Assembly (NCBI RefSeq): GCF_003573545.1
Contig: NZ_QWET01000005.1
Span: 62,001 to 126,000, forward strand
DNA from: Mariniphaga sediminis
GTDB lineage: Bacteria; Bacteroidota; Bacteroidia; Bacteroidales; Prolixibacteraceae
Direction: 5' to 3'
DNA length: 64,000 nucleotides
The notes under the pieces are model-generated. The model did not search any database. It was given only the letters and a program-made list of their open reading frames with translations, and had not been told where the DNA came from. Positions 94 through 14,876 of this stretch are shown here, piece after piece (the stretch's first letter is position 1; each line of letters starts with the position of its first letter). The translations under genes and the position numbers were made by a program.

Positions 94-3000
94 TTAAAAT
101 TGAACTCTAATTCCGAATGTATATTCAGGTGTTACCCCCAAGCTTAACCCACCGTATTTGTCAACTGTTTCGGGATCAATATTTTCATCATTTTTTGTCC
201 AGAGCCAAAGGTTACGTCCCTGCGCCTGTAATTGGACATTATTTAAAAATGGCCCAATCAGACTCTTGGGCAAGTTATAAGTAAGGCTTAATGTACTAAA
301 CCGTATATATGACCCTGATTGAGATCGGTAGTCACTATATTGATAAAAATCGCTTCTCTCCCCTTTAACCTGATAGTCCGTTGGCATTTTAGGGATGTAA
401 GTATTATTTTCATCACCAGGGTTTTTCCACCTTTTGTCCATGTCGGAATTAAGGTAAGCATAATTATGGTGAGGAGAAGGCATACGCATCATATATCCCA
501 GTTTGTACGAAAATATGGCATTTAATGTAAGTCCCTTATAGCTCCATGTATTTCCCATCGCCCCATAGAACTTAGGAACCCTTGACCCCTGGAAAATAAG
601 CCATTCGGGGTATTCTAAATCAGGTTCTTCCCATGAAACAATGTTTCCGGCGTCATCGTAAATTTGTGGTTCGCCTTCGCTGTCTAGGCCTGCCCAGCGG
701 TACGAATAAAAATGATCTATTGGTTTGCCCAAAATTTCATGCCCCGAAATCGGATTTAAATACCTGAAGACAGTAGGGTTTGGATTGTACACTTTTGTTA
801 CCTCATTTTTATTATGAGATACATTCAGCCCGGCATCCCATCTGAATTCACCCTTCAGTATCGTTCCGTCTATCTGGATGTCAAATCCTTTGTTTTCTAC
901 TTCGGCTGTGTTTTTATATACCTGACCAAAACCGGTTGTAGGATCTGCTGCCACAAATCCCAGAAGGTCAAAACTTTTTCTTTGGTATAATTCAATGGTG
1001 GCACCAAGCCGGTTGTTAAAACCGCTGAAATCGATTCCCAGGTTGTGGGTCCGGGTACTTTCCCACTTTAACTCCTTATTCTCAGGTGATTCAATATCCA
1101 GGTATGATTCCTGGGTATAATAATCTTTTTCTGCAGAAGCGATGAGTTCTTTGCTGGTCTTTTTATCGATATTCCCATTTACACCTGTGGTAATACGTAG
1201 ATTAAGGAAATCAATTTTATCCACATCGAAAAAATCTCCTTTTGATATGGTCCAGGAACCGCCAACACTGTAAAGCGGGGTAATCCGGTCGTTGACATCA
1301 ACCCCGAACAGATTTGACTCATCAATACGGGCACTGGCTGAAAGGGTATACTTTTGATTATAGGTGTAGGAAGCATTGGAATAAACCGAAAAAAAGCGGT
1401 TCTCAACTTCGTTAGTCTTTAATTGATAGTTGTGAACACTATAGTAAGCAGGTCTTCCATCCCATAATTTATATTTACCGCCTGTTAGTCCTTTTGCATC
1501 TATAAAATCATACGTTAATTTTTCTCTGTCATAATTATTATATAAACGTCCATAATTTTTATAAATACTTCGGGTGACTTCTGTTCCAAGGATAGCTGAA
1601 ACCTGATGCATTTCATCGTTAGACGAACGTTTAAAGTTTAACTGGTTCCTGAAGGAATAGACATTTGTATTGCTGTTGGCAATAAACAGTGTAGGGCCGT
1701 TCGGGAGCTGATATATTAAATTCCCGTTGTCATATAGAGTAAGTTTGTTAATCCAATCTCTGGAGTACCAACTTCCCATGTTATAGTAGGATTCATTTTT
1801 GTAGTCATTTTTTTCAAACATAAATTTTGAATCAAAGCTCAATCCTTCCATAATATCGTAGAGAAGTCCAACATTAACGCGTGGTGTAAAACTGCTATAT
1901 GTCTTATCGTTGTTGTCAAACTCCTGCTTTAAGTTGTAAGTCCAGTTGTGGTATCCTAATGCTTCCCATTCTTTTGCCTTTTCCAAAGTCATTGAATTGC
2001 TTGATAACCCTCTTGTGAAGCTCGGTATATAATTTCCGTTATCATCCAGTATGCGTTCGTATGCATGGTATCGAGACAAATCATACATACTTATTCCATT
2101 ACCTGTCCCTTTATTGTAGTTGCCGCTGATAATCAGATCGAAGCGCAACTTTGGAAGCAACTGCATCTTGTTGTTGACCATAAAATTCAGGACTTCCTTA
2201 TCGTTGCCAATGCTATACGCTTTATTGCTTTGATAATTTACTGAAACGTAAAAGGTATTTAGTTCTGAAGCTCCTGAAACCGATAAATTGTATTGTTGCG
2301 AAAGGCTATTTCTGAAAAACAGTTCTGTGGCTTCATTGAGAATATTATTGGAACGGAGCTGGTTGTAAATGGCATTGGCTTCTGCTTCGGAAAGCAACCC
2401 CTGATGTTGTTTCCGATAGGTATCCAAAACGAGTGATTGTCCCTGGCTATGTTCGAAACTATTCAGGTTCCAGTACCCTCTTTCAATTTGTTCCAAATGA
2501 TAGTCAACCGTTGTTGCGCCATCTGCCAGGCGCAGGTCATCAAGGTCGGGCATTTGTGAAATCCTTAGCGTGGAAGAAAAGTCAAATGATGCCTTGTTCT
2601 TAGTTTTGGCGTTGCCCATTATGCGTTTTCCTTTTCCACTTTTTGTTGTAATGACAATTACTCCGTTGGAAGCCCTTACCCCCCAAATGGAAGCAGCCGC
2701 TGCATCGCGCAATACCGTAATGCTTTCAATATCGTTCGGGTTTATATTGTCTATGCTGGTTTCAATGGGGAAACCATCCAGAACAATGACCGGGACTGTT
2801 GATGCATTTAATGAACTTTTCCCCCTGATAGTAATATTATTATTTTGATCGATTAGGACACCCGGTAACATACCGCCTTGTAATTTCTCGGCAAGTGTAG
2901 TTGACCCGATTTGTTTATCCAGATCCTCGCTTTTTACAGAGACAAAAGCCCCGGTAGCCCTTTCGCGCGAGAGGGTCTGGTAACCAGTTACCACAATGTT

Positions 3001-3666
3001 ATCCAGTTCCTGGATATCGCTTTCCAGCGCAATGCGGAAATTCGACTTATTGCCTATCTCAACCTCCTGTGTAACAAATCCGATAAAGGAAACAACAATC
3101 CGGTTTTTGTCTTCAGGCACAAGCAGCTCAAAATTTCCATTTTCATCCGTAGGTGCCCCAATGGTTGTCCCTTTTACCATTATGTTGACTCCGGGTAGTG
3201 TAACCCCATCATGGTCGGTAACTGTACCGGTAATTTTTTTCCCCTCTTCCTGTTGGGGTGCCTTCTTTTCTGTTGCAGGCTTTTTCTTTCTGTTGGCTTT
3301 TTCGGCTTTTTTAATAACTACAACATTCTCGACTTCTTTATATGTGAGTCCGGTACCTTTCAAAACTTCATCCATAAACTCACGGATGGATACATCTTCC
3401 ATATCAACAGAAATCGGTTTTTTCACTTCTTCAAGGTCATCCGTACCGTAAACAAAAACAAAATCCGTATTACGCTGGACCTCCCAAAATAATTTGGACA
3501 ATGTGATATTCGAAAATTTCACGTCCATTTTGTTCCCTTGTGAGTAAACGCTTGCAGAGATTTGCATGATACCTGCAAATAACAATAAAACAATCAGCCG
3601 CATAATTCGCCTAATTTTTCCTAACCTTTTAATTCCAAAAAGTAGCAAACTAACATCTTTTTTCAT
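94..3666 (-). CDS. SusC/RagA-like TonB-dependent outer membrane receptor with STN domain
   Basis: Full-length SusC-type receptor of 1190 residues. In order: hydrophobic signal around residues 22-43 ending ASVYSQ; STN domain (about 46-117), the part that signals to a FecR partner; a Lys/Glu-rich linker; a carboxypeptidase-regulatory-like domain (about 143-205, with GVNIMVKGTTIG and GNFELLVP); plug domain from about 228 (IVVTGYQTLSRERATG, VIVLDGFPIE, IWGVRASNGVIVITTKSG); then the beta-barrel, ending in aromatic GIRVQF as outer membrane barrels do. It imports a ligand through the outer membrane with TonB energy. The STN domain and the upstream sigma/FecR pair point to transport-coupled autoregulation. 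The substrate cannot be read from sequence, and no glycan-degrading enzyme lies beside it in the window. Confidence 0.96.
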   Translation of the reverse strand: MKKDVSLLLFGIKRLGKIRRIMRLIVLLLFAGIMQISASVYSQGNKMDVKFSNITLSKLFWEVQRNTDFVFVYGTDDLEEVKKPISVDMEDVSIREFMDEVLKGTGLTYKEVENVVVIKKAEKANRKKKPATEKKAPQQEEGKKITGTVTDHDGVTLPGVNIMVKGTTIGAPTDENGNFELLVPEDKNRIVVSFIGFVTQEVEIGNKSNFRIALESDIQELDNIVVTGYQTLSRERATGAFVSVKSEDLDKQIGSTTLAEKLQGGMLPGVLIDQNNNITIRGKSSLNASTVPVIVLDGFPIETSIDNINPNDIESITVLRDAAAASIWGVRASNGVIVITTKSGKGKRIMGNAKTKNKASFDFSSTLRISQMPDLDDLRLADGATTVDYHLEQIERGYWNLNSFEHSQGQSLVLDTYRKQHQGLLSEAEANAIYNQLRSNNILNEATELFFRNSLSQQYNLSVSGASELNTFYVSVNYQSNKAYSIGNDKEVLNFMVNNKMQLLPKLRFDLIISGNYNKGTGNGISMYDLSRYHAYERILDDNGNYIPSFTRGLSSNSMTLEKAKEWEALGYHNWTYNLKQEFDNNDKTYSSFTPRVNVGLLYDIMEGLSFDSKFMFEKNDYKNESYYNMGSWYSRDWINKLTLYDNGNLIYQLPNGPTLFIANSNTNVYSFRNQLNFKRSSNDEMHQVSAILGTEVTRSIYKNYGRLYNNYDREKLTYDFIDAKGLTGGKYKLWDGRPAYYSVHNYQLKTNEVENRFFSVYSNASYTYNQKYTLSASARIDESNLFGVDVNDRITPLYSVGGSWTISKGDFFDVDKIDFLNLRITTGVNGNIDKKTSKELIASAEKDYYTQESYLDIESPENKELKWESTRTHNLGIDFSGFNNRLGATIELYQRKSFDLLGFVAADPTTGFGQVYKNTAEVENKGFDIQIDGTILKGEFRWDAGLNVSHNKNEVTKVYNPNPTVFRYLNPISGHEILGKPIDHFYSYRWAGLDSEGEPQIYDDAGNIVSWEEPDLEYPEWLIFQGSRVPKFYGAMGNTWSYKGLTLNAIFSYKLGYMMRMPSPHHNYAYLNSDMDKRWKNPGDENNTYIPKMPTDYQVKGERSDFYQYSDYRSQSGSYIRFSTLSLTYNLPKSLIGPFLNNVQLQAQGRNLWLWTKNDENIDPETVDKYGGLSLGVTPEYTFGIRVQF

Positions 3667-3750: not shown

Positions 3751-4920
3751 TTAATTATGTATTATTATTTTTTCTCCCTCTATTTTAAATTTCATTTTCC
3801 CGGTAGCCTCAATTATTTTCAAAAACTCGTTCAGATTTTCGTAACGGTTTACATTCACTGAGAACCGGACTCTTTTTAACGATTCATCTTCATATAAATC
3901 TTCGAAATCGTACCATTTCCGCAAATCGTTGAGAATATAGCTGATACTCTCGTCAACATACATGAATTTTCCGTCTTTCCAGGAGGTAAAAACAGAAGCA
4001 TCAACGTTTTTGACACTGAGTTGGTTGCCTTCTAAAATATAATTAGCCTGTTGGTCCGGGAGTAACACTAATTCCTTATCCTCACTGATCACTTTTACTT
4101 TTCCCTGGCTTAGGGTAGTCTGCGATAGCGCGTCATCGGGATACGCTTTAACATTAAAGTGTGTCCCCAATACTTCTACTTTCACGCTATTTGTTTTTAC
4201 TATAAATGGTTTTTCTGCATCCGGGTGAACTTCAAAATAGGCCTCGCCGGTTAGTTCAACTTCGCGGGTTTCATCGTCAAAACTTACCGGGTATCTCATG
4301 GTAGTTGAGGCATTGAGCCAGACTTTAGTTCCATCAGAAAGTACCAGAAAAAATTCTCCCCGGTGGGGGATTTGTATGGTATTGTATTGTGTTTTGTGTG
4401 TGCGTTTAAGTCTGTTTGTATACTCAATTTTGTTGTCAACAATACGTATGTTGGTGCTCCCGGCATTAAGGTTTACTAGTGTATCCCTGTTCTCCAGTTC
4501 AAGTGATTCCCCGTTGTCGAGCAGGAGCAGAGCTTTAGGCTGTCCTGGTTCGAACTGCACCACTGTAGCGGGTTGTTCGATTACCTCCTGCTGTTTTTCT
4601 AATTGAAACAACAGGTATATGGCAAGTGGCAGGAGCATTACGGCAGCAAATTTGGCTGCAATCGTCCAAATATTAGGGCTCCGTCCTTTTTTCAGTTTGG
4701 GCTCCATTTTTTTCCACGACTGTTTCTCTCCAAACCGATAATAAATATCTTCCCACTCTTTAAAATTTTTATCTTCTTTTATTTTATTGAAGAGTTCCAG
4801 ATTTTCTGGAGATTCATTTAACCATGAATCAAGCTCCTCCCGGCTTTCTTTACCAATATCTCCTCCGACAGACTTTGCTATCAGTTTTGAGATCCTGAGA
4901 TGTCGATTTATATTATCCAT
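3751..4920 (-). CDS. FecR-family anti-sigma factor / sigma regulator
   Basis: Inner membrane protein of 389 residues from the ATG at 4920; a longer reading to 4950 exists, but MDNINRHLRISKLIAK looks like the natural start. The N-terminal cytoplasmic part would hold the ECF sigma factor. One membrane span follows (IAAKFAAVMLLPLAIYLLF), then the periplasmic FecR domain (GEFFLVLSDGTKVWLNA, YFEVHPDAEKPFIVKT, VEVLGTHFNVKAY) and a C-terminal DUF4974-type domain (LRKWYDFEDLY to the end) that would contact the STN domain of the receptor. It sits between the sigma factor and the SusC-like gene, the standard order for this signalling type. I infer that receptor occupancy is relayed through FecR to release sigma. 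Confidence 0.93.
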   Translation of the reverse strand: MDNINRHLRISKLIAKSVGGDIGKESREELDSWLNESPENLELFNKIKEDKNFKEWEDIYYRFGEKQSWKKMEPKLKKGRSPNIWTIAAKFAAVMLLPLAIYLLFQLEKQQEVIEQPATVVQFEPGQPKALLLLDNGESLELENRDTLVNLNAGSTNIRIVDNKIEYTNRLKRTHKTQYNTIQIPHRGEFFLVLSDGTKVWLNASTTMRYPVSFDDETREVELTGEAYFEVHPDAEKPFIVKTNSVKVEVLGTHFNVKAYPDDALSQTTLSQGKVKVISEDKELVLLPDQQANYILEGNQLSVKNVDASVFTSWKDGKFMYVDESISYILNDLRKWYDFEDLYEDESLKRVRFSVNVNRYENLNEFLKIIEATGKMKFKIEGEKIIIHN

Positions 4921-5265
4921 GGTAATCTTTTTTTCAACAACACATTGCAAGTATAAATGGGTGAATACAGATGCGCTTTTTTTTAATTTTATTTTTTCAG
5001 GGTGAAATTATTTGCAATAAACAACTTATTTCGAGCTTTTAGTAATAAAATGTGAAATGCTGTTTGTACCCATTTTTGAGATGTGAAGCCTTTCCTGGGA
5101 GGTTGGTGTTTCTTTTCATCTTGGTTCGACCGGGTGGGTAGGGGGCGTAAAAGTTGCGGGGAGTCTGCCTTGAAATGCTATAATTGGAATAGGAGAATAA
5201 ATACCAAAAAAGATACACGTTGCTCGGTTATAGTTAATTAAAACCGGTTGTAGCTTGTTTTTATT
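4921..5265. other. Intergenic stretch between ECF sigma and fecR-like genes
   Basis: This 345-base stretch holds no convincing reading frame, tRNA or terminator. It is AT-rich near the fecR-like gene and has a G-rich patch near 5130-5165. Its size suggests that the fecR-like gene may have its own promoter in addition to read-through from the sigma gene, but I could not identify a good TAnnTTTG box on the minus strand. Confidence 0.5.
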
Positions 5266-6091: not shown

Positions 6092-7345
6092 TTAATATTC
6101 TTTATTCTGAAAAACATTGATTGCAATAAACCCGAAAAGCCCGGTTGCAGCAACCAGCAGTAGGTCGATAATGTTATTTTTAAACCGTAATTTGCGTTTT
6201 CGTATGAGGAAAACGGAAACTCCCAATAGAACAGCATGTAAATACACCCAGCTAAAATTGGAATATCCGTCAAAATTAAATTTGACAAAATCGATGTACT
6301 TTGGGTCAGAGCGCGGTTGGGTCAGCTTTAAAGTAAACGGGAATAGAAAGTGATATGCTTTCCCGATTAACATTTCTGACTTTGGCTGGAATTCTTCATA
6401 ATAGGAGTCGATAATATTGTGGTCAAGATCGACCGCATAGGCTGCTATGCTATTTTCGGTATTAACCTGAAACATCCAGAAAAGCATGTTGCCCATAATA
6501 TAGATAGTATGCTCTTCCGGGATATAGTCATAGACGGGTATTTCAACTATTTCGTAGTCTTTGGAGTACAGTATGTTTAACCGGTTATCTTCGGAAATAA
6601 TAAAGCAATAGAGCTTTTCGTTTTCTACTTCCAGATACTGCATGTATTTAATCTGAAAGTCTTCCGGAATTTCAATCCGGTTGAACACGGGCTGGCCGTT
6701 TTCCATTTTCAGGTGAAAAAGGTCTCCTATGTTGTCGGTTATAAACCAGCCGTCGGCCCTATTTTTTCTATGACTTGGATTACCCGCCAGGATTTGAGCC
6801 GGGAAAACAAATCCTTCTTTTTCGAAGGCCTTTGTAAAAAGAAGGCTCTTTTCTTCGTTTACTTCATTGCTTTGCACATTGACAAACTCCACCCGCTTCT
6901 TAATTCTGCACAGGTCGCCGGGCAATGCTATTTTTCCCGTTGATTCGTACAATGGGAACAACCTGTACTCATCAGCCGGACGCCTGAGAGAGTGTGGAAC
7001 AAACCCATACATTATAAAATTTTGGTGCCAGGTTTCGATATCTATTTTTACCCCATCGATACTATCGGGCAACAAACCTGATTGATGTAAAGAAGTGGCA
7101 AACATCATGGGGCACTGCTCCATCATTTCCGTTTGGGTATATTCTTTCCCTTTGGTGTCTACCGGATTCAGTACTTTCTTTTCGTCATACCGGCTGATAT
7201 AAAAATCGTCGTTTAATGCACTGTACAATATATGTGGAGTGTTAATCCTTTTGTCAAAAAGTGTATTGTATAAGATAGGTACTGAATAGGCCAATACCAG
7301 AATGGCTATCATTACCAATAAATATCTGCTTAGTTTATGTAACAT
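6092..7345 (-). CDS. DUF4857-like membrane protein, copy A
   Basis: Protein of 417 residues of unknown function that I place, from memory, in the DUF4857 group found beside ABC transporters in Bacteroidota. One membrane span lies near the N-terminus (about 8-27), then a large extracytoplasmic domain, then two C-terminal spans (WVYLHAVLLGVSVFLI and IIDLLLVAATGLFGFIAINVF) separated by a basic RKRKLRFKNN loop. It is the last gene of the operon. Its ATG overlaps the permease stop by one base (TAATG), so translation is probably coupled. It is clearly related to the protein at 8939-10180 (shared starts, IYxxLxxDEF-like region, DGWFITD, YDYxPE, FGFIA ends) but the two have diverged widely. It may act as an accessory or substrate-handling subunit (inference). 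Confidence 0.8.
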   Translation of the reverse strand: MLHKLSRYLLVMIAILVLAYSVPILYNTLFDKRINTPHILYSALNDDFYISRYDEKKVLNPVDTKGKEYTQTEMMEQCPMMFATSLHQSGLLPDSIDGVKIDIETWHQNFIMYGFVPHSLRRPADEYRLFPLYESTGKIALPGDLCRIKKRVEFVNVQSNEVNEEKSLLFTKAFEKEGFVFPAQILAGNPSHRKNRADGWFITDNIGDLFHLKMENGQPVFNRIEIPEDFQIKYMQYLEVENEKLYCFIISEDNRLNILYSKDYEIVEIPVYDYIPEEHTIYIMGNMLFWMFQVNTENSIAAYAVDLDHNIIDSYYEEFQPKSEMLIGKAYHFLFPFTLKLTQPRSDPKYIDFVKFNFDGYSNFSWVYLHAVLLGVSVFLIRKRKLRFKNNIIDLLLVAATGLFGFIAINVFQNKEY

Positions 7346-8013
7346 TACATTTCTCCTTTCCTGAATCTGTAAATTGAAAATAAGATTGATATGCTAAAGA
7401 GTACAACCAGTATCAAAAAAAAGCCGTTCGCATAAATGTAAGATCCTGCTTTCCAGAGTATAAAAAACATTTTAATGAATAATCCACCAATAACGAGGTA
7501 AGCAATCCGGTATTTCCAGATAGGTTCAATGGCAACCATGCCCGCAATAAAAAAAGCAGCAAAACCCGACATAAACCAGGGGGCAACCGTTATTGCCGCT
7601 ACCCTAATAATTTCGTACGGAAAATAGTAACGGCCAATTCCTATGAATACTAAAAACATAAGCGAAAAAATAATAGTAAGGCTCATTACCCCAAAGGCCA
7701 CCATTTGTAATCCGGCTTTCTCCTCGTTTATTGGAAGGTGGAGGGTGAGTTTTATCCTTTTTTCAGTCATTTCAGGAATAAACTGTGCTAATCCTATTAA
7801 TAACCCTATTCCCAAAGGCAAAAACTTAAACAAGGTGAAAAAAACAAAATCCCTGTTCATTATTTTCCAGAGATAGTGGTTAACAGGTGTGTCTGCCAGT
7901 TCGCTTCTTATGATCATATACATGGCCAGCGTAACTCCGACTCCAACAATTACCGACAGCCAAAAGACGAGCCTGATTTTTATCCATTCTTTATAAAACA
8001 TTGACTTCCACAT
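7345..8013 (-). CDS. ABC-2-like transporter permease, copy A
   Basis: Membrane protein of 222 residues with about six predicted spans, for example VFWLSVIVGVGVTLAMYMII, LFKFLPLGIGLLIGLAQFI and FLILVVLFSISILFSIY. It has no large periplasmic domain, so it is an ABC-2-like permease and not an FtsX/MacB type. Only three bases separate it from the ATPase stop, and its own stop overlaps the next start. The first 20 residues (MWKSMFYKEWIKIRLVFWLS) are identical to the permease at 10180-10848, and so is the last stretch (SILFSIYRFRKGEM), while the middle has diverged. Together with the ATPase it should form an exporter or a membrane-perturbing complex; the substrate is unknown. Confidence 0.82.
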   Translation of the reverse strand: MWKSMFYKEWIKIRLVFWLSVIVGVGVTLAMYMIIRSELADTPVNHYLWKIMNRDFVFFTLFKFLPLGIGLLIGLAQFIPEMTEKRIKLTLHLPINEEKAGLQMVAFGVMSLTIIFSLMFLVFIGIGRYYFPYEIIRVAAITVAPWFMSGFAAFFIAGMVAIEPIWKYRIAYLVIGGLFIKMFFILWKAGSYIYANGFFLILVVLFSISILFSIYRFRKGEM

Positions 8014-8904
8014 ATCCTAATATTTTCCTGTTAAACCAATAAATGCGTCTTCAAGGGTCATGGGTACCTCCCTGAAATTGCTGTATGCAATTCCCAGCGA
8101 TGCCAGGTAGCTTTCTACTTCGTTTGCCCGGGAGTAAGTGTACAGTTCGATAGTACTGTCTATCTTTTCATAATTTTCGACCAGTCCCCCTTTTTCAAAC
8201 TCTACATCGGGGTTGGTAACCTCAAAGTTGAACTGTTTAAATGTTGACATAAACTCTTTGACCGGCATGTACACCAATACTTTATTGTAATCGAATACGA
8301 TACATTCATCGATGAGCCGTTCCATATCCTGGATAATGTGGGAAGTGGTAAAAACCGTCTTTCCTTCGGCTTTGGCATAGTTGCGCAAGTAGTCGATAAA
8401 AAGCCTTCGGTAACCGGGGTCGAGTCCCATGGTGAAATCATCGAGAACCAGCAGCTCCGGGTCTTGTGCGAGGATAAGTCCCAGGGCAACCTGTGAGCGC
8501 TGTCCGCACGACATGGTTGATATTTTTTGTTTCGGGGTTACCTTTAGTTTGGCCATCAGGTCGTAGTATGCCTCACGCTTCCAGTTTGGGTAGAAGCCCG
8601 AATAGAACTTCTCAATTTGGTAAATATTCATGAATGCATACTGCACGTGGTTTTCAATCAAATAGCCAATCTGTGATTTTACATACGGCGACAGGTTTTT
8701 CGAATTCTCCCCGAGGATGATGCATTCACCGCTCCGGGGAGTCAAATAACCGTTTAGAATATTGATAGTGGTAGTTTTCCCTGTCCCGTTTTTACCAAGA
8801 AGCCCAAGGATACTACCTTTTTTTATATTGAAGTTAAGGTCCTCGTAGACCATTTTATTGCCATAATAATGTGTCAGGTTACGGCATTCTACGATGTTCT
8901 CCAT
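7955..8904 (-). repeat. Homogenised 950-bp direct repeat, copy A
   Basis: Bases 7955-8904 match 10790-11739 at a constant offset of 2835. By eye I count 13 differences, all inside the ATPase gene and all silent. Identity stops at the ATPase start codon on one side and a little inside the permease gene on the other. This suggests a tandem duplication kept alike by gene conversion. Confidence 0.9.
8017..8904 (-). CDS. ABC transporter ATP-binding protein, copy A (identical to copy B)
   Basis: ATPase of 295 residues. Walker A is GKNGTGKT (37-44), the signature is a variant MSCGQRSQ (131-138) in place of LSGGQ, and Walker B is LLVLDD (151-156). The residue after the Walker B aspartate is Asp156, where most ABC ATPases have the catalytic Glu; His194 in TTSHI is the switch histidine. 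A 70-residue C-terminal domain follows. The protein is identical at every residue to the one encoded at 10852-11739, although the DNA differs at about 13 silent sites. It is the fourth gene of the operon, 34 bases after the copy B DUF4857-like gene. It should power the neighbouring six-span permease. Confidence 0.93.
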   Translation of the reverse strand: MENIVECRNLTHYYGNKMVYEDLNFNIKKGSILGLLGKNGTGKTTTINILNGYLTPRSGECIILGENSKNLSPYVKSQIGYLIENHVQYAFMNIYQIEKFYSGFYPNWKREAYYDLMAKLKVTPKQKISTMSCGQRSQVALGLILAQDPELLVLDDFTMGLDPGYRRLFIDYLRNYAKAEGKTVFTTSHIIQDMERLIDECIVFDYNKVLVYMPVKEFMSTFKQFNFEVTNPDVEFEKGGLVENYEKIDSTIELYTYSRANEVESYLASLGIAYSNFREVPMTLEDAFIGLTGKY

Positions 8905-8938
8905 AATGATTGTTTTACTTATTTACAGGATGTAATAC

Positions 8939-10180
8939 TTAATATTCTTTATTTGGAAACAGGTTCACTGCAATAAAACCGAAGATACCTGTTGCCGCAA
9001 TTAATACCAGGTCGAGTATGTTGTTTTTAAAACGGCGCTTTTTCCGGATGATGAAAAAGACGTTTAACAGGACGAAAATGACACTTGCCACAATCCAGGA
9101 AAAATTGTTGTACCCGTTAAATACAAATTTGATGTAACTGTGATGATTTTCACCAAACCTCAGATTGAAAGGGAACAGGGTCGCAAAAGCTTTTCCTACA
9201 GACAACTCTGAATAAGGCTTATTTTCTTTTTCAAACTTATTCAGTAGTTTATAATTCCTGTCGAGGACATAAATTTTCCTTTGATTAAAAGAAGAAAAAT
9301 CAACTTTTGTAAAATAGGGGGTTTTTCTAAACATCAGGGAATAATGTTTTTCCGGGTTGTAATCGTAAACGGGGAGTTCGATCAATCCGTAATCCAGGCT
9401 GCTGAGGATATATAGCTTATTCTCCTCCGAAATGACATAGGCGTGGATACTGCGCGACTCAATAGTTGACGGACTGACATATTTTACCTTAAATCCTTCC
9501 GGAGTTTCAATCTTTTTCAGATAGGGTTTACCATTTTCCATCTTCATATGGTAGAAAAGGTCTTTGCTGTCGGTAATAAACCAGCCATTATCATAAGGTT
9601 TCATAACGGTTGGTATACCAGCCATCAATTTTGCCGGATAATTGAAATTTTCATTATTAAAAATTCGTGTAAAGATTTCACTCTTTTCCTCATCAACCTT
9701 GTTAGTTTCAGCAAGTATAAATTCCACTCTTTTCTTTCCGATTCTGCATACATCATGGGGAAACCTCAGCGCGGTTTTTGAATCCATCAGGGGAAAGAGT
9801 CTGTAAGAGGGCATTGACATAAATGAACTTCGTATGCTGGCATAATCGCTTTCGGGACGGAATTTTTCAACATCAATTTTCATCCCGCTAATGCTATCCG
9901 GGAACTCTCCTTTTTTAATCAGGAAAAATGAATTTTCAATGGGGCATGCTTTATGAAATTCATCTTCCGGAATTACTTCTCCTTTTGAGTTCTTAATAGT
10001 TTGTATGCTTAATTCATAGTCATATGTAGAAGTAAAAAATTCATCTTTTAACAGACTGTAATAAATACTGGGATACTGACCGGGAACCTTAAACAAGGTT
10101 CTGTAAATTGTTGGGATAACATTTGACAGGATGATAATGGCTGCGGCCACTAATAGATATCTGCTTATTTTTTGTAACAT
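8939..10180 (-). CDS. DUF4857-like membrane protein, copy B
   Basis: Protein of 413 residues, paralogous to the one at 6092-7345. It has the same plan: N-terminal span (about 8-27), an extracytoplasmic domain, then two spans (FSWIVASVIFVLLNVFFII, ILDLVLIAATGIFGFIAVNLF) around a basic RKKRRFKNN loop. Its start overlaps the copy B permease stop (TAATG). Shared islands with copy A include KISRYLLV, SISGMKIDVE (SIDGVKIDIE in A), RLFPL, DGWFITD versus NGWFITD, PVYDY and the C-terminus. Most of the domain between these islands differs, which argues for different ligands or partners. No enzymatic motif was recognised. Confidence 0.8.
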   Translation of the reverse strand: MLQKISRYLLVAAAIIILSNVIPTIYRTLFKVPGQYPSIYYSLLKDEFFTSTYDYELSIQTIKNSKGEVIPEDEFHKACPIENSFFLIKKGEFPDSISGMKIDVEKFRPESDYASIRSSFMSMPSYRLFPLMDSKTALRFPHDVCRIGKKRVEFILAETNKVDEEKSEIFTRIFNNENFNYPAKLMAGIPTVMKPYDNGWFITDSKDLFYHMKMENGKPYLKKIETPEGFKVKYVSPSTIESRSIHAYVISEENKLYILSSLDYGLIELPVYDYNPEKHYSLMFRKTPYFTKVDFSSFNQRKIYVLDRNYKLLNKFEKENKPYSELSVGKAFATLFPFNLRFGENHHSYIKFVFNGYNNFSWIVASVIFVLLNVFFIIRKKRRFKNNILDLVLIAATGIFGFIAVNLFPNKEY

Positions 10181-10848
10181 TACATTTCTCCTTTCCTGAA
10201 TCTGTAAATTGAAAATAAAATGGACATACTCATCAGCAGGATAATTCCCAGGAAGGGTAACCAGGCATACTTATATGCCCCTGCTATTGGCGACTGAAAA
10301 AACAGGTGAACAAATGAAAAAGCTAACAATGCATAGAAAACTTTATATTTCCACAGGGGTTCAATGGTTATCATTCCTGTGAGGAAATAGGCAGCCAGTC
10401 CGGCAGAAAACCATGGTATTACAGTACTTGCAGAAAGGGCTATAACCTCGTAAGGGAAATAATATCTTCCGGGAAAAATAAGCAAAGCAAACAAAGTAAG
10501 ATACAGGGCAACAAGGCAGATAACGCCGAAGATTACCATTTTTAAACCTGCCTTTTCTTCATTCAGGGGGAGGTGCAGCGTTAATTTAATCCTTCGTTGT
10601 TTAACTTCGGGGATAAACTGTGCCAGTCCAATTATTACCCCTATGCCTAAAGGAATAAACTTAAACAAATTAAAATAGATATACATTTTATTAATGATTC
10701 CGTCCCAAAATTCATGGGCATTGGCAATAATAAATGAGTGCCTTACATTAAGGTAAATTCCGAGAATGGCAATTGCCCCAATGGCCAGTGACAGCCAAAA
10801 GACGAGCCTGATTTTTATCCATTCTTTATAAAACATTGACTTCCACAT
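10180..10848 (-). CDS. ABC-2-like transporter permease, copy B
   Basis: Membrane protein of 222 residues, the same length as its paralogue at 7345-8013, with about six spans (VFWLSLAIGAIAILGIYLNV, LFKFIPLGIGVIIGLAQFI and others). The cytoplasmic loop with KLTLHLPLNEEKAGL is shared with copy A (KLTLHLPINEEKAGL), probably the coupling region that touches the common ATPase (inference). Three bases separate it from the ATPase stop, and it is coupled by a TAATG overlap to the DUF4857-like gene. Divergence is concentrated in the membrane spans and outer loops, as expected if substrate choice has changed while the ATPase contact has not. Confidence 0.82.
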   Translation of the reverse strand: MWKSMFYKEWIKIRLVFWLSLAIGAIAILGIYLNVRHSFIIANAHEFWDGIINKMYIYFNLFKFIPLGIGVIIGLAQFIPEVKQRRIKLTLHLPLNEEKAGLKMVIFGVICLVALYLTLFALLIFPGRYYFPYEVIALSASTVIPWFSAGLAAYFLTGMITIEPLWKYKVFYALLAFSFVHLFFQSPIAGAYKYAWLPFLGIILLMSMSILFSIYRFRKGEM

Positions 10849-11739
10849 ATCCTAATATTTTCCTGTTAAACCAATAAATGCGTCTTCAAGGGTCATGGGT
10901 ACCTCCCTGAAATTGCTGTACGCAATTCCCAGCGATGCCAGGTAGCTTTCTACTTCGTTTGCCCGGGAGTAAGTGTACAGTTCGATAGTACTGTCTATCT
11001 TTTCGTAATTTTCGACCAGTCCCCCTTTTTCAAACTCTACATCGGGGTTGGTAACCTCAAAGTTGAACTGTTTAAATGTTGACATAAACTCTTTGACCGG
11101 CATGTACACCAATACCTTATTGTAATCGAATACGATACATTCATCGATGAGCCGTTCCATATCCTGAATAATGTGGGAAGTGGTAAAAACCGTTTTTCCT
11201 TCGGCTTTGGCATAGTTGCGCAAGTAGTCGATAAAAAGCCTTCGGTAACCGGGGTCGAGTCCCATGGTGAAATCGTCGAGTACCAGCAGCTCCGGGTCTT
11301 GTGCGAGGATAAGTCCCAGGGCAACCTGTGAGCGCTGTCCGCACGACATGGTTGATATTTTCTGTTTCGGGGTTACCTTTAGTTTGGCCATCAGGTCGTA
11401 GTATGCCTCACGCTTCCAGTTTGGGTAGAAGCCCGAATAGAACTTCTCAATTTGGTAAATATTCATGAATGCATACTGCACGTGGTTTTCAATCAAATAG
11501 CCAATCTGTGATTTTACATACGGCGACAGGTTTTTCGAATTCTCCCCAAGGATGATACATTCGCCGCTCCGGGGAGTCAAATAACCGTTTAGAATATTGA
11601 TGGTGGTAGTTTTCCCGGTCCCGTTTTTACCAAGAAGCCCAAGGATACTACCTTTTTTTATATTGAAGTTAAGGTCCTCGTAGACCATTTTATTGCCATA
11701 ATAATGTGTCAGGTTACGGCATTCTACGATGTTCTCCAT
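10790..11739 (-). repeat. Homogenised 950-bp direct repeat, copy B
   Basis: This is the partner of 7955-8904. It covers the whole ATPase gene, the three-base gap and the first about 20 codons of the permease. Outside these limits the two modules differ strongly, apart from the short conserved permease/DUF4857 junction near 7335-7375 and 10170-10210. Confidence 0.9.
10852..11739 (-). CDS. ABC transporter ATP-binding protein, copy B, first gene of the six-gene operon
   Basis: ATPase of 295 residues with the same protein sequence as the gene at 8017-8904, including the variant signature MSCGQRSQ and Asp156 at the usual catalytic Glu position. It opens the operon ATPase-permease-DUF4857, ATPase-permease-DUF4857, which ends at the terminator at 6034-6064. 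The 394-base gap upstream should hold the operon promoter. The identical ATPases could serve either permease. The general architecture resembles ABC exporters of the antibiotic-resistance or bacteriocin-immunity type (inference from a short ATPase plus a small six-span permease). Confidence 0.93.
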   Translation of the reverse strand: MENIVECRNLTHYYGNKMVYEDLNFNIKKGSILGLLGKNGTGKTTTINILNGYLTPRSGECIILGENSKNLSPYVKSQIGYLIENHVQYAFMNIYQIEKFYSGFYPNWKREAYYDLMAKLKVTPKQKISTMSCGQRSQVALGLILAQDPELLVLDDFTMGLDPGYRRLFIDYLRNYAKAEGKTVFTTSHIIQDMERLIDECIVFDYNKVLVYMPVKEFMSTFKQFNFEVTNPDVEFEKGGLVENYEKIDSTIELYTYSRANEVESYLASLGIAYSNFREVPMTLEDAFIGLTGKY

Positions 11740-12133: not shown

Positions 12134-13672
12134 TCAGAAAAATAATTTTCTGGTTTCATCTTCCAGCATAGGATTTCCGTAAGTAATATTATGTCCTTTT
12201 TCAAAATCGAACAGGGTAAGTACACGAAGCCGGTAATAGGCCACCCAGTAACTTTGTATCGACCGGATATAATCTCGTTTCGCCTGTTCACGTTCCTGCA
12301 GGGCGATGTTCAGGTCGGTTATACTCAGTTCGCCATTTTGAAATTTTCGCAAGGCAATCTGGTACCCGTTTTCAGCCACTTTATCTGCCTCGTCGGCTGT
12401 TCGCAACTGGTCTTTCAGCAAACCAAACTGTTCCACCTGCACAATAATCGACCGGTCAAACTCTTCAATATCCTTATTCACATTGTAAATGGTAAGCTCC
12501 CTTTCCGACTCGGCAAGTTTAACGGTTGAGGCCGATCGTCCCCAGTCGAGAATCGGGATACTTAATGAAATACGCAACATCCGGTCGCGCTCGGGCTGGT
12601 CGTATATACCCAGGAATGTTTCTGCGCTGTTCGATAAACCAAAACTTCCGCGCAGAGTGGTACTCAGGCCGGTGCTGTTTTTGGCCTGGGCAAGTTCCCG
12701 GTCAGCATTAATTAACCGGCGTTGGTAAAGCGAGGTTTCCTGTCGATTTTCTCTCGCTTTTTGAACTGCCAAATCTAAATCGATATCAAAAAACCGGATA
12801 TCCAGAGGTATGTTAAGATCGATTTGCATTGATTGTTCCAGACCAACATATCTTTTCAATTCAAAATCTGTATTTTTTAGATCCATATTAGCCTGGTTTA
12901 GCGCTTTTTGGGCATTCAGGACCGAAAGCTCGATTCGCGAATAATCGTTGTCGGATATTTGTCCCAGTTCTTTTTTTGTTTGTGATATGCGAAGGTTATC
13001 CTGGCTGTTTTTCAAATTGTTCTCAGCCAGTTTGTAGTTGGTTTGCACCATCAGGTAATTAAAGTAACGGTAGGTTGTATTCAGGGCAATTTCTTCAATT
13101 TGCTGAACAAAGCGTTTTTGTGCTTCATCATAAATCATGGGCTCGGTTTTACGATACCATTTCATCCAGTTGTAAGCAAACAACGGCTGGCTGAAACCAA
13201 TTACAAACGGACTACCTGAATATCCGATTTCATTTTTATTCAAGTTCCGAATGCCGTGGGCTGAAGTACTTGCCCAAATGTTGGTTCCCAGCTTGGGAAT
13301 AGACTGGTTTAAAGAAACGTTGGCAGATGCGGCAAGGTTGGAAACCTGTTTAAATTCTATGCTGCCATCGGGTTGGGTGATGGGTTGGGTGGTATGTGTA
13401 TAATTTGGCAGATCTCCTGACAAGGTTAACTGAGGCCTGAATCGTGTTTTGAAATTCCGGTAGCGCCAAAAATAATTTACATTTTGATTTTGAACATATT
13501 TGGATGAGGGTGAGTGGGTTAGTGCCAAATCAATAACATCATCAAGCGATAAGCTATTCTTTATGGAATCATTTTGTGAGAAAACCGGGTTTACTGAAAC
13601 GGCCAAACCCGTAAATAATACTAAAAAAAACGTTCTCATTTTTGCGAGTCTATTTTTCCAATTCAATTTCAT
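12134..13672 (-). CDS. TolC-family outer membrane efflux channel
   Basis: About 512 residues from the ATG at 13672; another possible start is 13639 (MRTFFLVLFTGLAVSV). The signal peptide ends near VNPVFSQ. The protein has the two-fold repeat typical of TolC: long amphipathic helices with coiled-coil spacing (NLKNSQDNLRISQTKKELG, LNAQKALNQANMDLKNTD, then the second half with AESERELTIYNVNKDIEEF and FQNGELSITDLNIALQERE) and a conserved turn (DWGRSASTVKLAE). It forms an outer membrane tunnel for efflux. The gene overlaps the end of the HlyD-like adaptor gene by 23 bases, so the pair is translated together. No dedicated pump gene lies directly in this pair; the nearest pump is the ABC operon downstream. 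Confidence 0.92.
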   Translation of the reverse strand: MKLNWKNRLAKMRTFFLVLFTGLAVSVNPVFSQNDSIKNSLSLDDVIDLALTHSPSSKYVQNQNVNYFWRYRNFKTRFRPQLTLSGDLPNYTHTTQPITQPDGSIEFKQVSNLAASANVSLNQSIPKLGTNIWASTSAHGIRNLNKNEIGYSGSPFVIGFSQPLFAYNWMKWYRKTEPMIYDEAQKRFVQQIEEIALNTTYRYFNYLMVQTNYKLAENNLKNSQDNLRISQTKKELGQISDNDYSRIELSVLNAQKALNQANMDLKNTDFELKRYVGLEQSMQIDLNIPLDIRFFDIDLDLAVQKARENRQETSLYQRRLINADRELAQAKNSTGLSTTLRGSFGLSNSAETFLGIYDQPERDRMLRISLSIPILDWGRSASTVKLAESERELTIYNVNKDIEEFDRSIIVQVEQFGLLKDQLRTADEADKVAENGYQIALRKFQNGELSITDLNIALQEREQAKRDYIRSIQSYWVAYYRLRVLTLFDFEKGHNITYGNPMLEDETRKLFF

Positions 13673-14876
13673 CTGATTGTCTGAATGCATTAAGTCCTTC
13701 AACAATTACAGCATCACCTTCGCTGAGGCCTGAAAGAACTTCACAATAATCATCTCCGATAATTCCGAGTGTAAAATCTTTTTTGATAGCCTTATTGCCT
13801 TCCACCACAAACATTTTTTGTTTTTGCCCGGCCTCAAATTCCGGTATTTTTTTTATTCTGAGGGCATCCTCTTTGAACCCGACAATTACCTGTATTTCAA
13901 CCTGCTGGTTGGCAATTAGCTTGGGGTGGCTACTTTCATGAAGATGTATATTAAACTGAATTTTTTTATTTTCAACCATTGGGGTAATATTTCCGACAGT
14001 GCCCTCCAAATGTTCGTCGTCCAGGTTTACCACTACCCGGTTCCCGGTTTTAAGCTGTACAGCGTGTTGTTCCTCAATCGAACCTGTTATTTTAAATGAG
14101 GTAAGATCCGACATTCGAACCAGTAAATGATCGGTGTTTACTTTTTCACCGGCTTTTCCTGAAATAGACAGGATGATACCGGCAGAAGGTGCCCGGATAC
14201 TCATTTTTTGAAGCAGGGTTTGCTTTTCCTCCAGTTCTTTTTCCTGCATTCTGATTTGTAGCAGGAGACCTTGTTCCTCGGCTTTAAGCTGTTTTAACCG
14301 GATTGAGTTTTTTTCTACCAGGGTTTCGAGATCCTTTTCTGCCAGTGTAATCTCCTGGTTTGTCTGGTCTATTTTGGCTGGCGAAATTCCCCCAACTTCC
14401 AGAAGTTGTTGCTGGTCTGCCAGTTGCGATTTCAGCGACATAATTTTCAGCTTCTTCACCTCTTCATTGTATTCCAGATCGAGTCGGGTACTCTGTGCAT
14501 TCAGGCGGGTCCTTTCCAGGTTGTTGCGTCTCACCTCAATCTGATCTTTTATACCATCAATATCATCCCGCACTCCGTCGGTATTCAACTGAAGAATAAC
14601 ATCGTCCTTTTTTACCCGGGTTCCGGGCTCGGCCAATATACTTTGAATAACACCCGGCCCAGGGCTCAGAATGAGTACTTCATTTTCCGAATCGACTACG
14701 CCGGTAGCGTGAATTGACAACAACACCGGGCCATGGTCAACTTCCTCCGTAACGAGGCTCCCTGCGCTTAAAGAAGAAGGAACAAAGAACCGGGAGGAAT
14801 AAACCGCAACGGCAATGATGGCAACCAGGGTTAATACTGAAAAGAGGAAAAGTTTAATTTTTTTATTACTTCCCAT
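13650..14876 (-). CDS. HlyD/MFP-family periplasmic adaptor protein
   Basis: Protein of 408 residues anchored by one N-terminal span (IKLFLFSVLTLVAIIAVAVY). The first half of a lipoyl-like domain follows (ILSPGPGVIQSILAEPGTRVKKDDVILQL is the region, about 85-115), then a long coiled-coil hairpin (about 120-215), the second lipoyl half (IRAPSAGIILSISGKAGEKV) and a beta-barrel domain (FKITGSIEEQHAVQLKTG). It would bridge an inner membrane pump and the TolC-like channel encoded immediately downstream. The pump partner is not adjacent; the duplicated ABC operon further downstream is a candidate (inference). Confidence 0.92.
   Translation of the reverse strand: MGSNKKIKLFLFSVLTLVAIIAVAVYSSRFFVPSSLSAGSLVTEEVDHGPVLLSIHATGVVDSENEVLILSPGPGVIQSILAEPGTRVKKDDVILQLNTDGVRDDIDGIKDQIEVRRNNLERTRLNAQSTRLDLEYNEEVKKLKIMSLKSQLADQQQLLEVGGISPAKIDQTNQEITLAEKDLETLVEKNSIRLKQLKAEEQGLLLQIRMQEKELEEKQTLLQKMSIRAPSAGIILSISGKAGEKVNTDHLLVRMSDLTSFKITGSIEEQHAVQLKTGNRVVVNLDDEHLEGTVGNITPMVENKKIQFNIHLHESSHPKLIANQQVEIQVIVGFKEDALRIKKIPEFEAGQKQKMFVVEGNKAIKKDFTLGIIGDDYCEVLSGLSEGDAVIVEGLNAFRQSDEIELEK

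What the first reader, a model, noticed from the sequence alone, without database searches (positions are those of the whole stretch)
6092..11739. Tandem ABC modules with identical ATPases but diverged permeases and DUF4857-like proteins
Seen: two ATPase-permease-DUF4857 sets lie head to tail in one operon. The ATPase proteins are identical over 295 residues while the DNA differs at 13 sites, all silent, and the identical tract stops at the ATPase start codon and about 20 codons into the permease. The permeases and DUF4857-like proteins are clearly paralogous but diverged. Inference: gene conversion plus strong selection homogenises the shared motor, while the membrane and extracytoplasmic parts diversify, giving one ATPase serving two exporters of different specificity.
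Basis: partly seen in the sequence, partly recalled or inferred. Interest (0 to 1): 0.78.

Follow-up and report, generated by a model that had tools for sequence, protein, structure and literature searches.

The report
Twin ABC transporters, one homogenised motor
A bacterium carries two neighbouring copies of a three-gene membrane pump in which the engine gene keeps being copied over between the two sets while the membrane and periplasmic parts drift apart, and relatives that run two such membrane parts from a single engine gene suggest the engine is shared.

Summary
Confirmed and explained. Two ATPase-permease-DUF4857 modules (A1-P1-D1, A2-P2-D2) lie head to tail. The ATPases differ at 13 of 888 nt, all silent; P1/P2 are 55% and D1/D2 42% identical. 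Maribellus luteus has the same tandem: its ATPase copies match each other (99.7%) better than their orthologues (93%), while P and D pair by copy. Site patterns, species/copy/cross: ATPase 145/0/1; remaining permease plus DUF4857 32/350/33. The spacer before A2 is homologous in both, so A2 predates their split. This is recurrent gene conversion confined to the ATPase and permease start.

'All silent' needs no special selection (P(0)=0.35 at omega 0.021). The tract ends at the start codon because similarity ends there.

New: a separate Bacteroidota clade has A-P-D-P-D, one ATPase with two P-D pairs (7 of 79 named loci; also G200). Butyricimonas has A-P-D-A-P-D with ATPases 91-92% alike and no recent conversion. 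A shared motor is likely; one heteromeric pump or two pumps is open. Substrate unknown.

The parts
10852..11739 (-). A1, ABC ATPase copy 1 (295 aa)
   Evidence: Pfam ABC_tran 79.1 bits, cut-off 25; protein identical to A2
10180..10848 (-). P1, permease copy 1 (222 aa)
   Evidence: 55% to P2, 79% to Maribellus luteus P1
8939..10180 (-). D1, DUF4857 protein copy 1 (413 aa)
   Evidence: PF16149 206.4 bits; 42% to D2, 75% to M. luteus D1
8017..8904 (-). A2, ABC ATPase copy 2 (295 aa)
   Evidence: 13 silent differences from A1
7345..8013 (-). P2, permease copy 2 (222 aa), modelled with six long helices
   Evidence: model pLDDT 87.0; 77% to M. luteus P2
6092..7345 (-). D2, DUF4857 protein copy 2 (417 aa)
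   Evidence: PF16149 237.2 bits; model pLDDT 91.5 with N-terminal helix, beta domain and C-terminal helices
10790..11739 (-). homogenised tract, copy 1: A1, 3-nt spacer and nt 1-59 of P1
   Evidence: site patterns switch from 'species' to 'copy' between permease nt 48 and 60
7955..8904 (-). homogenised tract, copy 2: A2, 3-nt spacer and nt 1-59 of P2 (inferred donor for the P1 N-terminus)
   Evidence: P1 residues 1-20 match both P2 proteins and differ from M. luteus P1 at four residues
8905..8938 (-). D1-A2 spacer, 34 nt in both species and homologous: A2 was in place before the species split
   Evidence: 0 of 1000 shuffles reach the alignment score
5266..5952 (-). ECF sigma factor downstream
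   Evidence: Pfam Sigma70_r4_2 and Sigma70_r2; a homologous gene follows the tandem in M. luteus
3751..4950 (-). FecR-type anti-sigma factor
   Evidence: Pfam FecR and FecR_C
94..3666 (-). SusC-type TonB-dependent receptor with STN domain; SusD and an M16 peptidase follow just outside the window

Best explanation
An A-P-D module was duplicated in tandem before the split of this Prolixibacteraceae-type lineage from Maribellus luteus. Since then the two P-D pairs have diverged by copy, while the ATPase gene plus the first part of the permease gene (switch at nt 48-60) has been overwritten by gene conversion, independently in each lineage (shown by comparison) and probably repeatedly (inferred from dS). 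The last event here most likely ran from copy 2 into copy 1 and ended inside P1 (inferred from the mosaic N-terminus). Each module looks like an ABC-2/NosFY-like pump: a cytosolic ATPase dimer, a six-helix permease, and a membrane-anchored periplasmic beta-domain protein, DUF4857 (inferred from models). Both P-D pairs most likely draw on one common ATPase pool (inferred from relatives with one ATPase gene for two P-D pairs). Conversion is possible because the ATPase stays similar enough to recombine, and tolerated or favoured because the copies are interchangeable.
For: Protein identities: copies within this genome A 100, P 55.4, D 42.2; within M. luteus 99.7, 50.7, 39.5; between species by copy A 92.9/92.9, P 79.3/76.6, D 74.8/80.6. 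Trees: P and D group WIN1+Mlut1 and WIN2+Mlut2 (SH-aLRT 98-100); for ATPase the window copies are identical and the Mlut copies are sisters (97). Four-way site patterns, species/copy/cross: ATPase 145/0/1; permease beyond nt 60 11/97/12; DUF4857 21/253/21. dS between paralogues 0.072 and 0.032, against 1.6-2.0 between species: the last homogenisation lies within roughly 4% and 2% of the time since the split, so events probably recur (inference; dS saturated). Homologous 34-nt spacer before A2 in both species. Control: 1275 single-module pairs with D under 45%, maximum ATPase identity 77.2%. Shared motor: A-P-D-P-D in 7 of 79 named loci, plus one cut by a contig end, plus G200. G200 (99% complete) has one ATPase at 88% identity to the query; its next hit by score is at 29%. 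Butyricimonas A-P-D-A-P-D: A 92.2 and 90.9, P 38, D 30.
Against: Only two species carry this tandem (G000 and M. luteus = G038, of 140 genomes of the family searched with the DUF4857 model, which could miss a weak D). Butyricimonas ATPase copies differ at 23 and 27 residues and show no recent conversion, so identity is not obligatory in two-module systems. There is no direct evidence that A1 and A2 proteins mix. One-ATPase genomes show that one gene can suffice, not that both pairs use it. Substrate and direction of transport are unknown. Permease fold matches are weak (best NosY, E=0.15).
Confidence: 0.8

Rival explanations
1. Same history, but homogenisation is a neutral by-product: the ATPase is the slowest-evolving gene, stays above the recombination identity threshold and keeps converting, while P and D drifted below it. 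No benefit of identity is involved. (This rival and the next concern cause and design; they do not exclude the best explanation's history, so the odds do not sum to one.)
For: The ATPase has the highest median identity of the three genes in every D-identity band of the control (one search shows A and P against D). All-silent differences are expected at ordinary dN/dS, P(0)=0.35. The tract seems to have overwritten four residues of the P1 N-terminus as well. Butyricimonas shows no recent conversion yet keeps both copies.
Against: Relatives keep one ATPase gene for two P-D pairs, and Butyricimonas ATPases are also far more alike than P or D predict, so interchangeability looks like a general property.
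Confidence: 0.45
2. P1 and P2 (with D1 and D2) form one heteromeric pump over an ATPase homodimer, rather than two separate pumps sharing a motor.
For: Two distinct P-D pairs with one ATPase gene also exist in a separate clade. In P1/P2 here the N-terminal 20 residues are 100% identical while TM1 and its outer loop (residues 21-63) are 23%, lower than in all 461 control pairs of similar overall identity (minimum 33%); M. luteus is alike for residues 21-63 (0 of 536 pairs as low).
Against: The same facts fit two homomeric pumps. Conservation of the TM2-TM3 loop here equals the control median (79%). The M. luteus N-terminus (80%) is matched by 14 of 536 pairs, and in Butyricimonas residues 21-63 are not unusual (150 of 674 pairs as low). 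No complex was modelled.
Confidence: 0.4
3. The ancestor was A-P-D-P-D and an ATPase copy was inserted before P2 independently in each lineage.
For: A-P-D-P-D exists in relatives.
Against: Same insertion point, and a spacer of the same length and homologous sequence in both species; the identical tract continues into P2; the A-P-D-P-D clade is a different branch of the P and D trees.
Confidence: 0.03
4. Recent module duplication followed by fast divergence of P and D only.
For: Low silent divergence of the ATPases alone.
Against: D1 and D2 each have their own orthologue in M. luteus at 75% and 81%, so the duplication is older than the split.
Confidence: 0.01
5. Purifying selection alone keeps the ATPases alike, without conversion; or the likeness is an assembly artefact.
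For: ATPase proteins are strongly constrained (dN 0.037-0.039 between species). Assembly cannot be checked without reads, and the window's genome has another near-identical pair of stretches.
Against: Silent sites are also homogenised: dS 0.072 within against 1.6-2.0 between species. Two separate assemblies show 13 and 7 scattered differences, not collapsed copies.
Confidence: 0.03

Closest known systems
[quoted passage not shown] PMC6053082, abstract and passages seen)
   Same: Paralogues within a species more alike than syntenic orthologues, mostly at silent sites too; 22 of 26 genes are members of stable complexes (passage).
   Different: The terms ABC, transporter and permease have no occurrence in its held main text. 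Here conversion is limited to one gene and the start of the next in a tandem three-gene module while the partners diverge; only two species so far, below that paper's five-species bar.
Single ABC-DUF4857 operon of Bacteroides thetaiotaomicron, BT3625-BT3633 (PMC10434189, passages seen)
   Same: DUF4857 protein, a hypothetical protein in the permease's place and an ABC ATPase side by side; the locus rose 36.7- to 128-fold on iron depletion.
   Different: Single module beside PepSY, DUF4876 and TonB-receptor genes; the window tandem sits beside ECF/FecR/SusC/SusD/M16 genes. I did not compare the BT sequences.
NosDFY (ABC-2-like ATPase and permease with a periplasmic partner; PDB 7o0y and related)
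   Same: Best Foldseek match of the permease model (TMq 0.56); NosF is among the ATPase's PDB matches, behind ABCA-type chains.
   Different: The permease match is not significant (E=0.15). DUF4857 is modelled as a membrane-anchored beta domain with weak propeller-like matches; that NosD is a beta-helix protein is recalled.
PmtABCD (two ATPases, two permeases; NCBIfam PmtA)
   Same: Best NCBIfam match of the ATPase (E=1.9e-40); two ATPase-permease pairs in one operon (recalled).
   Different: 138.9 bits against a cut-off of 350. That the Pmt ATPases are diverged and that no DUF4857 partner is present is recalled.

Membership tests
Concerted evolution by gene conversion | Paralogues closer to each other than to syntenic orthologues, in more than one lineage | tested here: met
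   99.7-100% within, 93% between species; ATPase tree
Concerted evolution by gene conversion | Silent sites homogenised as well | tested here: met
   dS 0.072 and 0.032 within, 1.6-2.0 between
Concerted evolution by gene conversion | Duplication older than the species split, with synteny | tested here: met
   P and D pair by copy; homologous spacer; same ECF, FecR, SusC neighbours
Long-lasting recurrent concerted evolution as defined in PMC6053082 | Seen in at least five species | tested here: not met
   two species, of 140 genomes of the family searched
DUF4857 (PF16149) | Score above the curated cut-off | tested here: met
   206.4 and 237.2 bits, cut-off 25
ABC ATPase (PF00005) | Score above the curated cut-off | tested here: met
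   79.1 bits, cut-off 25
PmtA equivalog (NF047565) | Curated cut-off 350 bits | tested here: not met
   138.9 bits
ABC-2 / NosFY-like permease | Fold like NosY | tested here: inconclusive
   best match, TMq 0.56, E=0.15; no sequence match in the PDB up to E=1 and no Pfam match above cut-off
Heteromeric pump with P1-P2 pair over one ATPase dimer | P1 and P2 in one complex | not testable with these tools
   no complex prediction on hand

The most novel reading that the evidence does not exclude
Bacteroidota have at least twice doubled the membrane and periplasmic half (permease plus DUF4857) of one ABC machine while keeping a single kind of ATPase: in one clade mostly with one ATPase gene, in the window's clade with two genes held identical by recurrent gene conversion. 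The two permeases form one heteromeric pump whose ATPase dimer must match both, so conversion works as quality control for a shared motor.
Probability: 0.3. Interest if true: 0.68.

Novelty: new variant of a known kind. Interest (0 to 1): 0.5.

Why it matters
Concerted evolution in bacteria is mostly described for whole genes (PMC6053082 looked at full-length cases; passage). Here, inside one gene cluster, one gene of three is homogenised in two lineages while its direct partners diverge, with the boundary located to about a dozen bases. The natural series A-P-D, A-P-D-P-D, A-P-D-A-P-D (diverging) and A-P-D-A-P-D (identical) makes it testable whether conversion protects an interaction with a shared subunit or merely follows sequence likeness. 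It also draws attention to a widespread receptor-linked ABC machine with almost no literature (one held paper names DUF4857).

Tried and rejected
Independent ATPase insertion in each lineage: rejected because the D1-A2 spacer is homologous and of equal length in both species. Recent duplication with fast divergence: rejected by site patterns. Purifying selection without conversion: rejected by dS. Special selection to explain 'all silent': not needed, P(0) 0.35 at omega 0.021 and 0.11 at 0.045.

Led nowhere: permease profile against PDB sequences, no match up to E=1; DUF4857 profile, one match at E=0.27; plasmid search, no match at 1e-60; DUF4857 fold search, only weak propeller-like matches (TM-score by query length up to 0.27 in the 50 rows shown), among them BtuG lipoproteins. 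Paper searches for an ABC-transporter case of concerted evolution showed none in the listed titles and abstract starts: 1 of 1, 15 of 18 and 12 of 26 papers listed. 'DUF4857' occurs in one held paper, BT3625-27 in the same one, and DUF4876 with related terms again only there. Searches on Pmt and NosDFY gave listings that I did not read further. Considered: the M16 peptidase beside SusC/SusD recalls ferredoxin-import (Fus) systems (search listing and abstract starts only); not tested and not claimed.

Rows dropped before counts: the trees used the named loci L039-L117 and the window, with truncated ORFs left out (83 A, 88 P, 85 D rows). The unnamed loci L009-L038 and L119-L124 were used only in the pattern listing and not in trees or controls; L118 is the same M. 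luteus contig as L039. One search used the 59 single-module loci with full A, P and D. The structure alignments took 84 of 85 D rows and 88 of 88 P rows. Neighbours were examined in 78 of 80 loci, L090 and L112 left out. Stretches L128 and L129 were fetched and not analysed.
Full report
Observation. Six genes on the minus strand form A1-P1-D1-A2-P2-D2. A is an ABC ATPase and D a DUF4857 protein; P has no Pfam match above cut-off and is modelled with six long helices. A1 and A2 differ at 13 of 888 nt, all third-position and silent. Identity runs from the ATG to nt 59 of the permease. Upstream of the ATG there is nothing to compare: A1 follows an intergenic region, A2 follows the end of D1. P1/P2 are 55% and D1/D2 42% identical.

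Is it unusual? Among 59 loci with a single complete module there are 1711 pairs; in the 1275 pairs with D identity under 45%, ATPase identity never exceeds 77.2%. The window pair (100/55/42 for A/P/D), M. luteus (99.7/50/39) and two Butyricimonas (92/38/30 and 91/38/30) all lie outside that range.

The deciding comparison. Maribellus luteus NZ_QWGR01000002.1 (L039; the same contig as G038:C111, L118, by length and content) has the same tandem, followed by homologous ECF, FecR and SusC genes. Between species, D1-D1 is 75%, D2-D2 81%, P1-P1 79%, P2-P2 77% and the ATPases 93%. The window and M. luteus ATPases differ at 21 residues in each pairing shown; at 20 of these sites both copies of each genome agree, the exception being residue 261 in M. 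luteus. Trees agree: P and D group by copy, the ATPases by species (quick trees, SH-aLRT support only). Alignment sites that split the four modules two and two, species/copy/cross: ATPase 145/0/1; spacer and permease nt 1-60 4/1/0; rest of permease 11/97/12; DUF4857 21/253/21. The switch falls between permease nt 48 and 60. The spacer before A2 is 34 nt in both species and alignable (0 of 1000 shuffles reach the score), so A2 was already there before the split; separate insertions are very unlikely.

Timing and direction. dS (NG86) is 0.072 between the window copies, 0.032 between the M. luteus copies and 1.6-2.0 between species. The between-species value is near saturation, so the last homogenisations lie within about 4% and 2% of the time since the split or less; that both are so recent argues for repeated events (inference). 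P1 here carries a P2-like N-terminus (residues 13-18) that differs from M. luteus P1 at four residues, which suggests copy 2 as donor in the last event. With M. luteus as reference, 8 of the 13 differences look derived in A2, 3 in A1, 2 are unclear (read from the table).

Selection. With the ATPase's own dN/dS of 0.021, 1.05 replacements are expected for this silent divergence, P(0)=0.35; at 0.045, P(0)=0.11. M. luteus shows 6 silent changes and 1 replacement. So 'all silent' is ordinary purifying selection after recent conversion. P1/P2 divergence is uneven: residues 21-63 (TM1 and outer loop) are 23% identical, below all 461 control pairs of similar overall identity (minimum 33%), while the N-terminal 20 residues are 100%, above all of them (maximum 85%). 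M. luteus: residues 21-63 also below all 536 control pairs, N-terminus reached by 14 of 536. Butyricimonas: not unusual (150 of 674 pairs as low; 25 of 674 as high).

Wider pattern. The 79 named loci (the best 80 of 392 matches kept) include A-P-D-P-D in 7 (L050, L094, L096, L100, L102, L104, L106), A-P-D-P cut by a contig end in 1 (L080), A-P-D-A-P-D in 3 (L039, L069, L081) and D-A-P-D in 1 (L089). G200, not among the 79, is also A-P-D-P-D; its ATPase is at 88% to the Coprobacter query and the next hit by score at 29%. G911 and G913 likewise have one such ATPase (85 and 88%; next 31 and 28%), but their contigs have the lengths of L096's and L102's, so they are not further cases; they are 78 and 83% complete. 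Coprobacter secundus (G284, L094) has a further ATPase at 59% with another DUF4857 gene elsewhere. The two-pair loci of this second clade group together in the P tree (19 rows, 100) and the D tree (19 rows, 99), apart from the window's clade, so doubling of P-D happened at least twice (inference). In Butyricimonas the A1 proteins of two species group (87), the A2 proteins group (82), and the two groups are sisters (100); the copies differ at 23 and 27 residues, mostly in the C-terminal part. Conversion or re-duplication there is older than the split of those two species.

Frequency. DUF4857 occurs in 53 of 140 genomes of the family, 53 of 392 sampled from the order and 14 of 392 from the phylum. 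The window-type tandem was seen only in G000 and G038. The order sample searched with the ATPase gave 51 of 392, with a second ATPase close by only in G000 (6 candidates scored per genome).

Surroundings (clusters by BLAST, names from representatives). Of 65 other loci (neither two-pair nor L089), 49 have a DUF4876 or DUF6850 protein within three ORFs, usually with a TonB receptor, and 23 a Fer4 or PepSY membrane protein. The window and M. luteus tandems sit beside ECF sigma, FecR and SusC; SusD and an M16 peptidase follow in the window's genome. The nearest single modules (L040-L044) also sit with SusD, two of them with M16. All 10 two-pair loci of the second clade have PKD_2, DUF4843 or SusD proteins nearby. 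None of the 12 two-pair loci shows DUF4876 or DUF6850 within three ORFs; L089 (D-A-P-D) does. In B. thetaiotaomicron a single-module locus is induced by iron depletion (PMC10434189, passages).

How it most likely works. Shown: an old tandem, and conversion limited to the ATPase and the permease start in two lineages. Inferred: the ATPase energises an ABC-2/NosFY-like permease (best fold match NosY, weak) that acts with DUF4857, modelled with helices at both ends and a beta domain between. Inferred: both P-D pairs use the same ATPase. Open: one heteromeric pump or two pumps, the substrate, and whether identity is selected or only tolerated.

Verdict. A clean new case of concerted evolution with an unusual boundary inside a gene cluster, and a plausible shared-motor design; not a new kind of system.

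Noticed in passing
G000:C4:85000-104000 (L138) and G000:C12:75000-94000 (L139): Two contigs of the window's genome share about 19 kb at 99.9% identity, interrupted near a 138-nt repeat; further ABC hits at similar spacing suggest the likeness extends beyond. A recent large duplication or redundant assembly.
   Followed up: partly
L089 4414-8505: Order D-A-P-D: a DUF4857 gene without its own detected permease lies before a complete module; a CpxP-like gene precedes it; the two D proteins are sisters in the tree.
   Followed up: partly
window 7345-7383 and 10180-10218: The last 39 nt of both permease genes are identical, and this end is nearly unchanged in M. luteus too; the stop codon overlaps the DUF4857 start, so a translation-coupling signal is possible.
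   Followed up: no
L043 (JAAEZN010000027.1): A MAG titled Algicola (listed under Pseudomonadota) carries a module very close to that of Flagellimonas (Bacteroidota): probably mislabelled or mixed.
   Followed up: no
L125:7736-10564: M16 peptidase next to SusD and SusC in the window's genome, with M16-cluster genes also beside modules in L043, L044, L098 and L105: possible link to protein or peptide uptake.
   Followed up: no
window 12134-14876: HlyD-type and outer-membrane efflux (OEP) genes upstream on the same strand; M. luteus has a divergent TauE-type gene there instead, so they are probably not part of the unit.
   Followed up: partly
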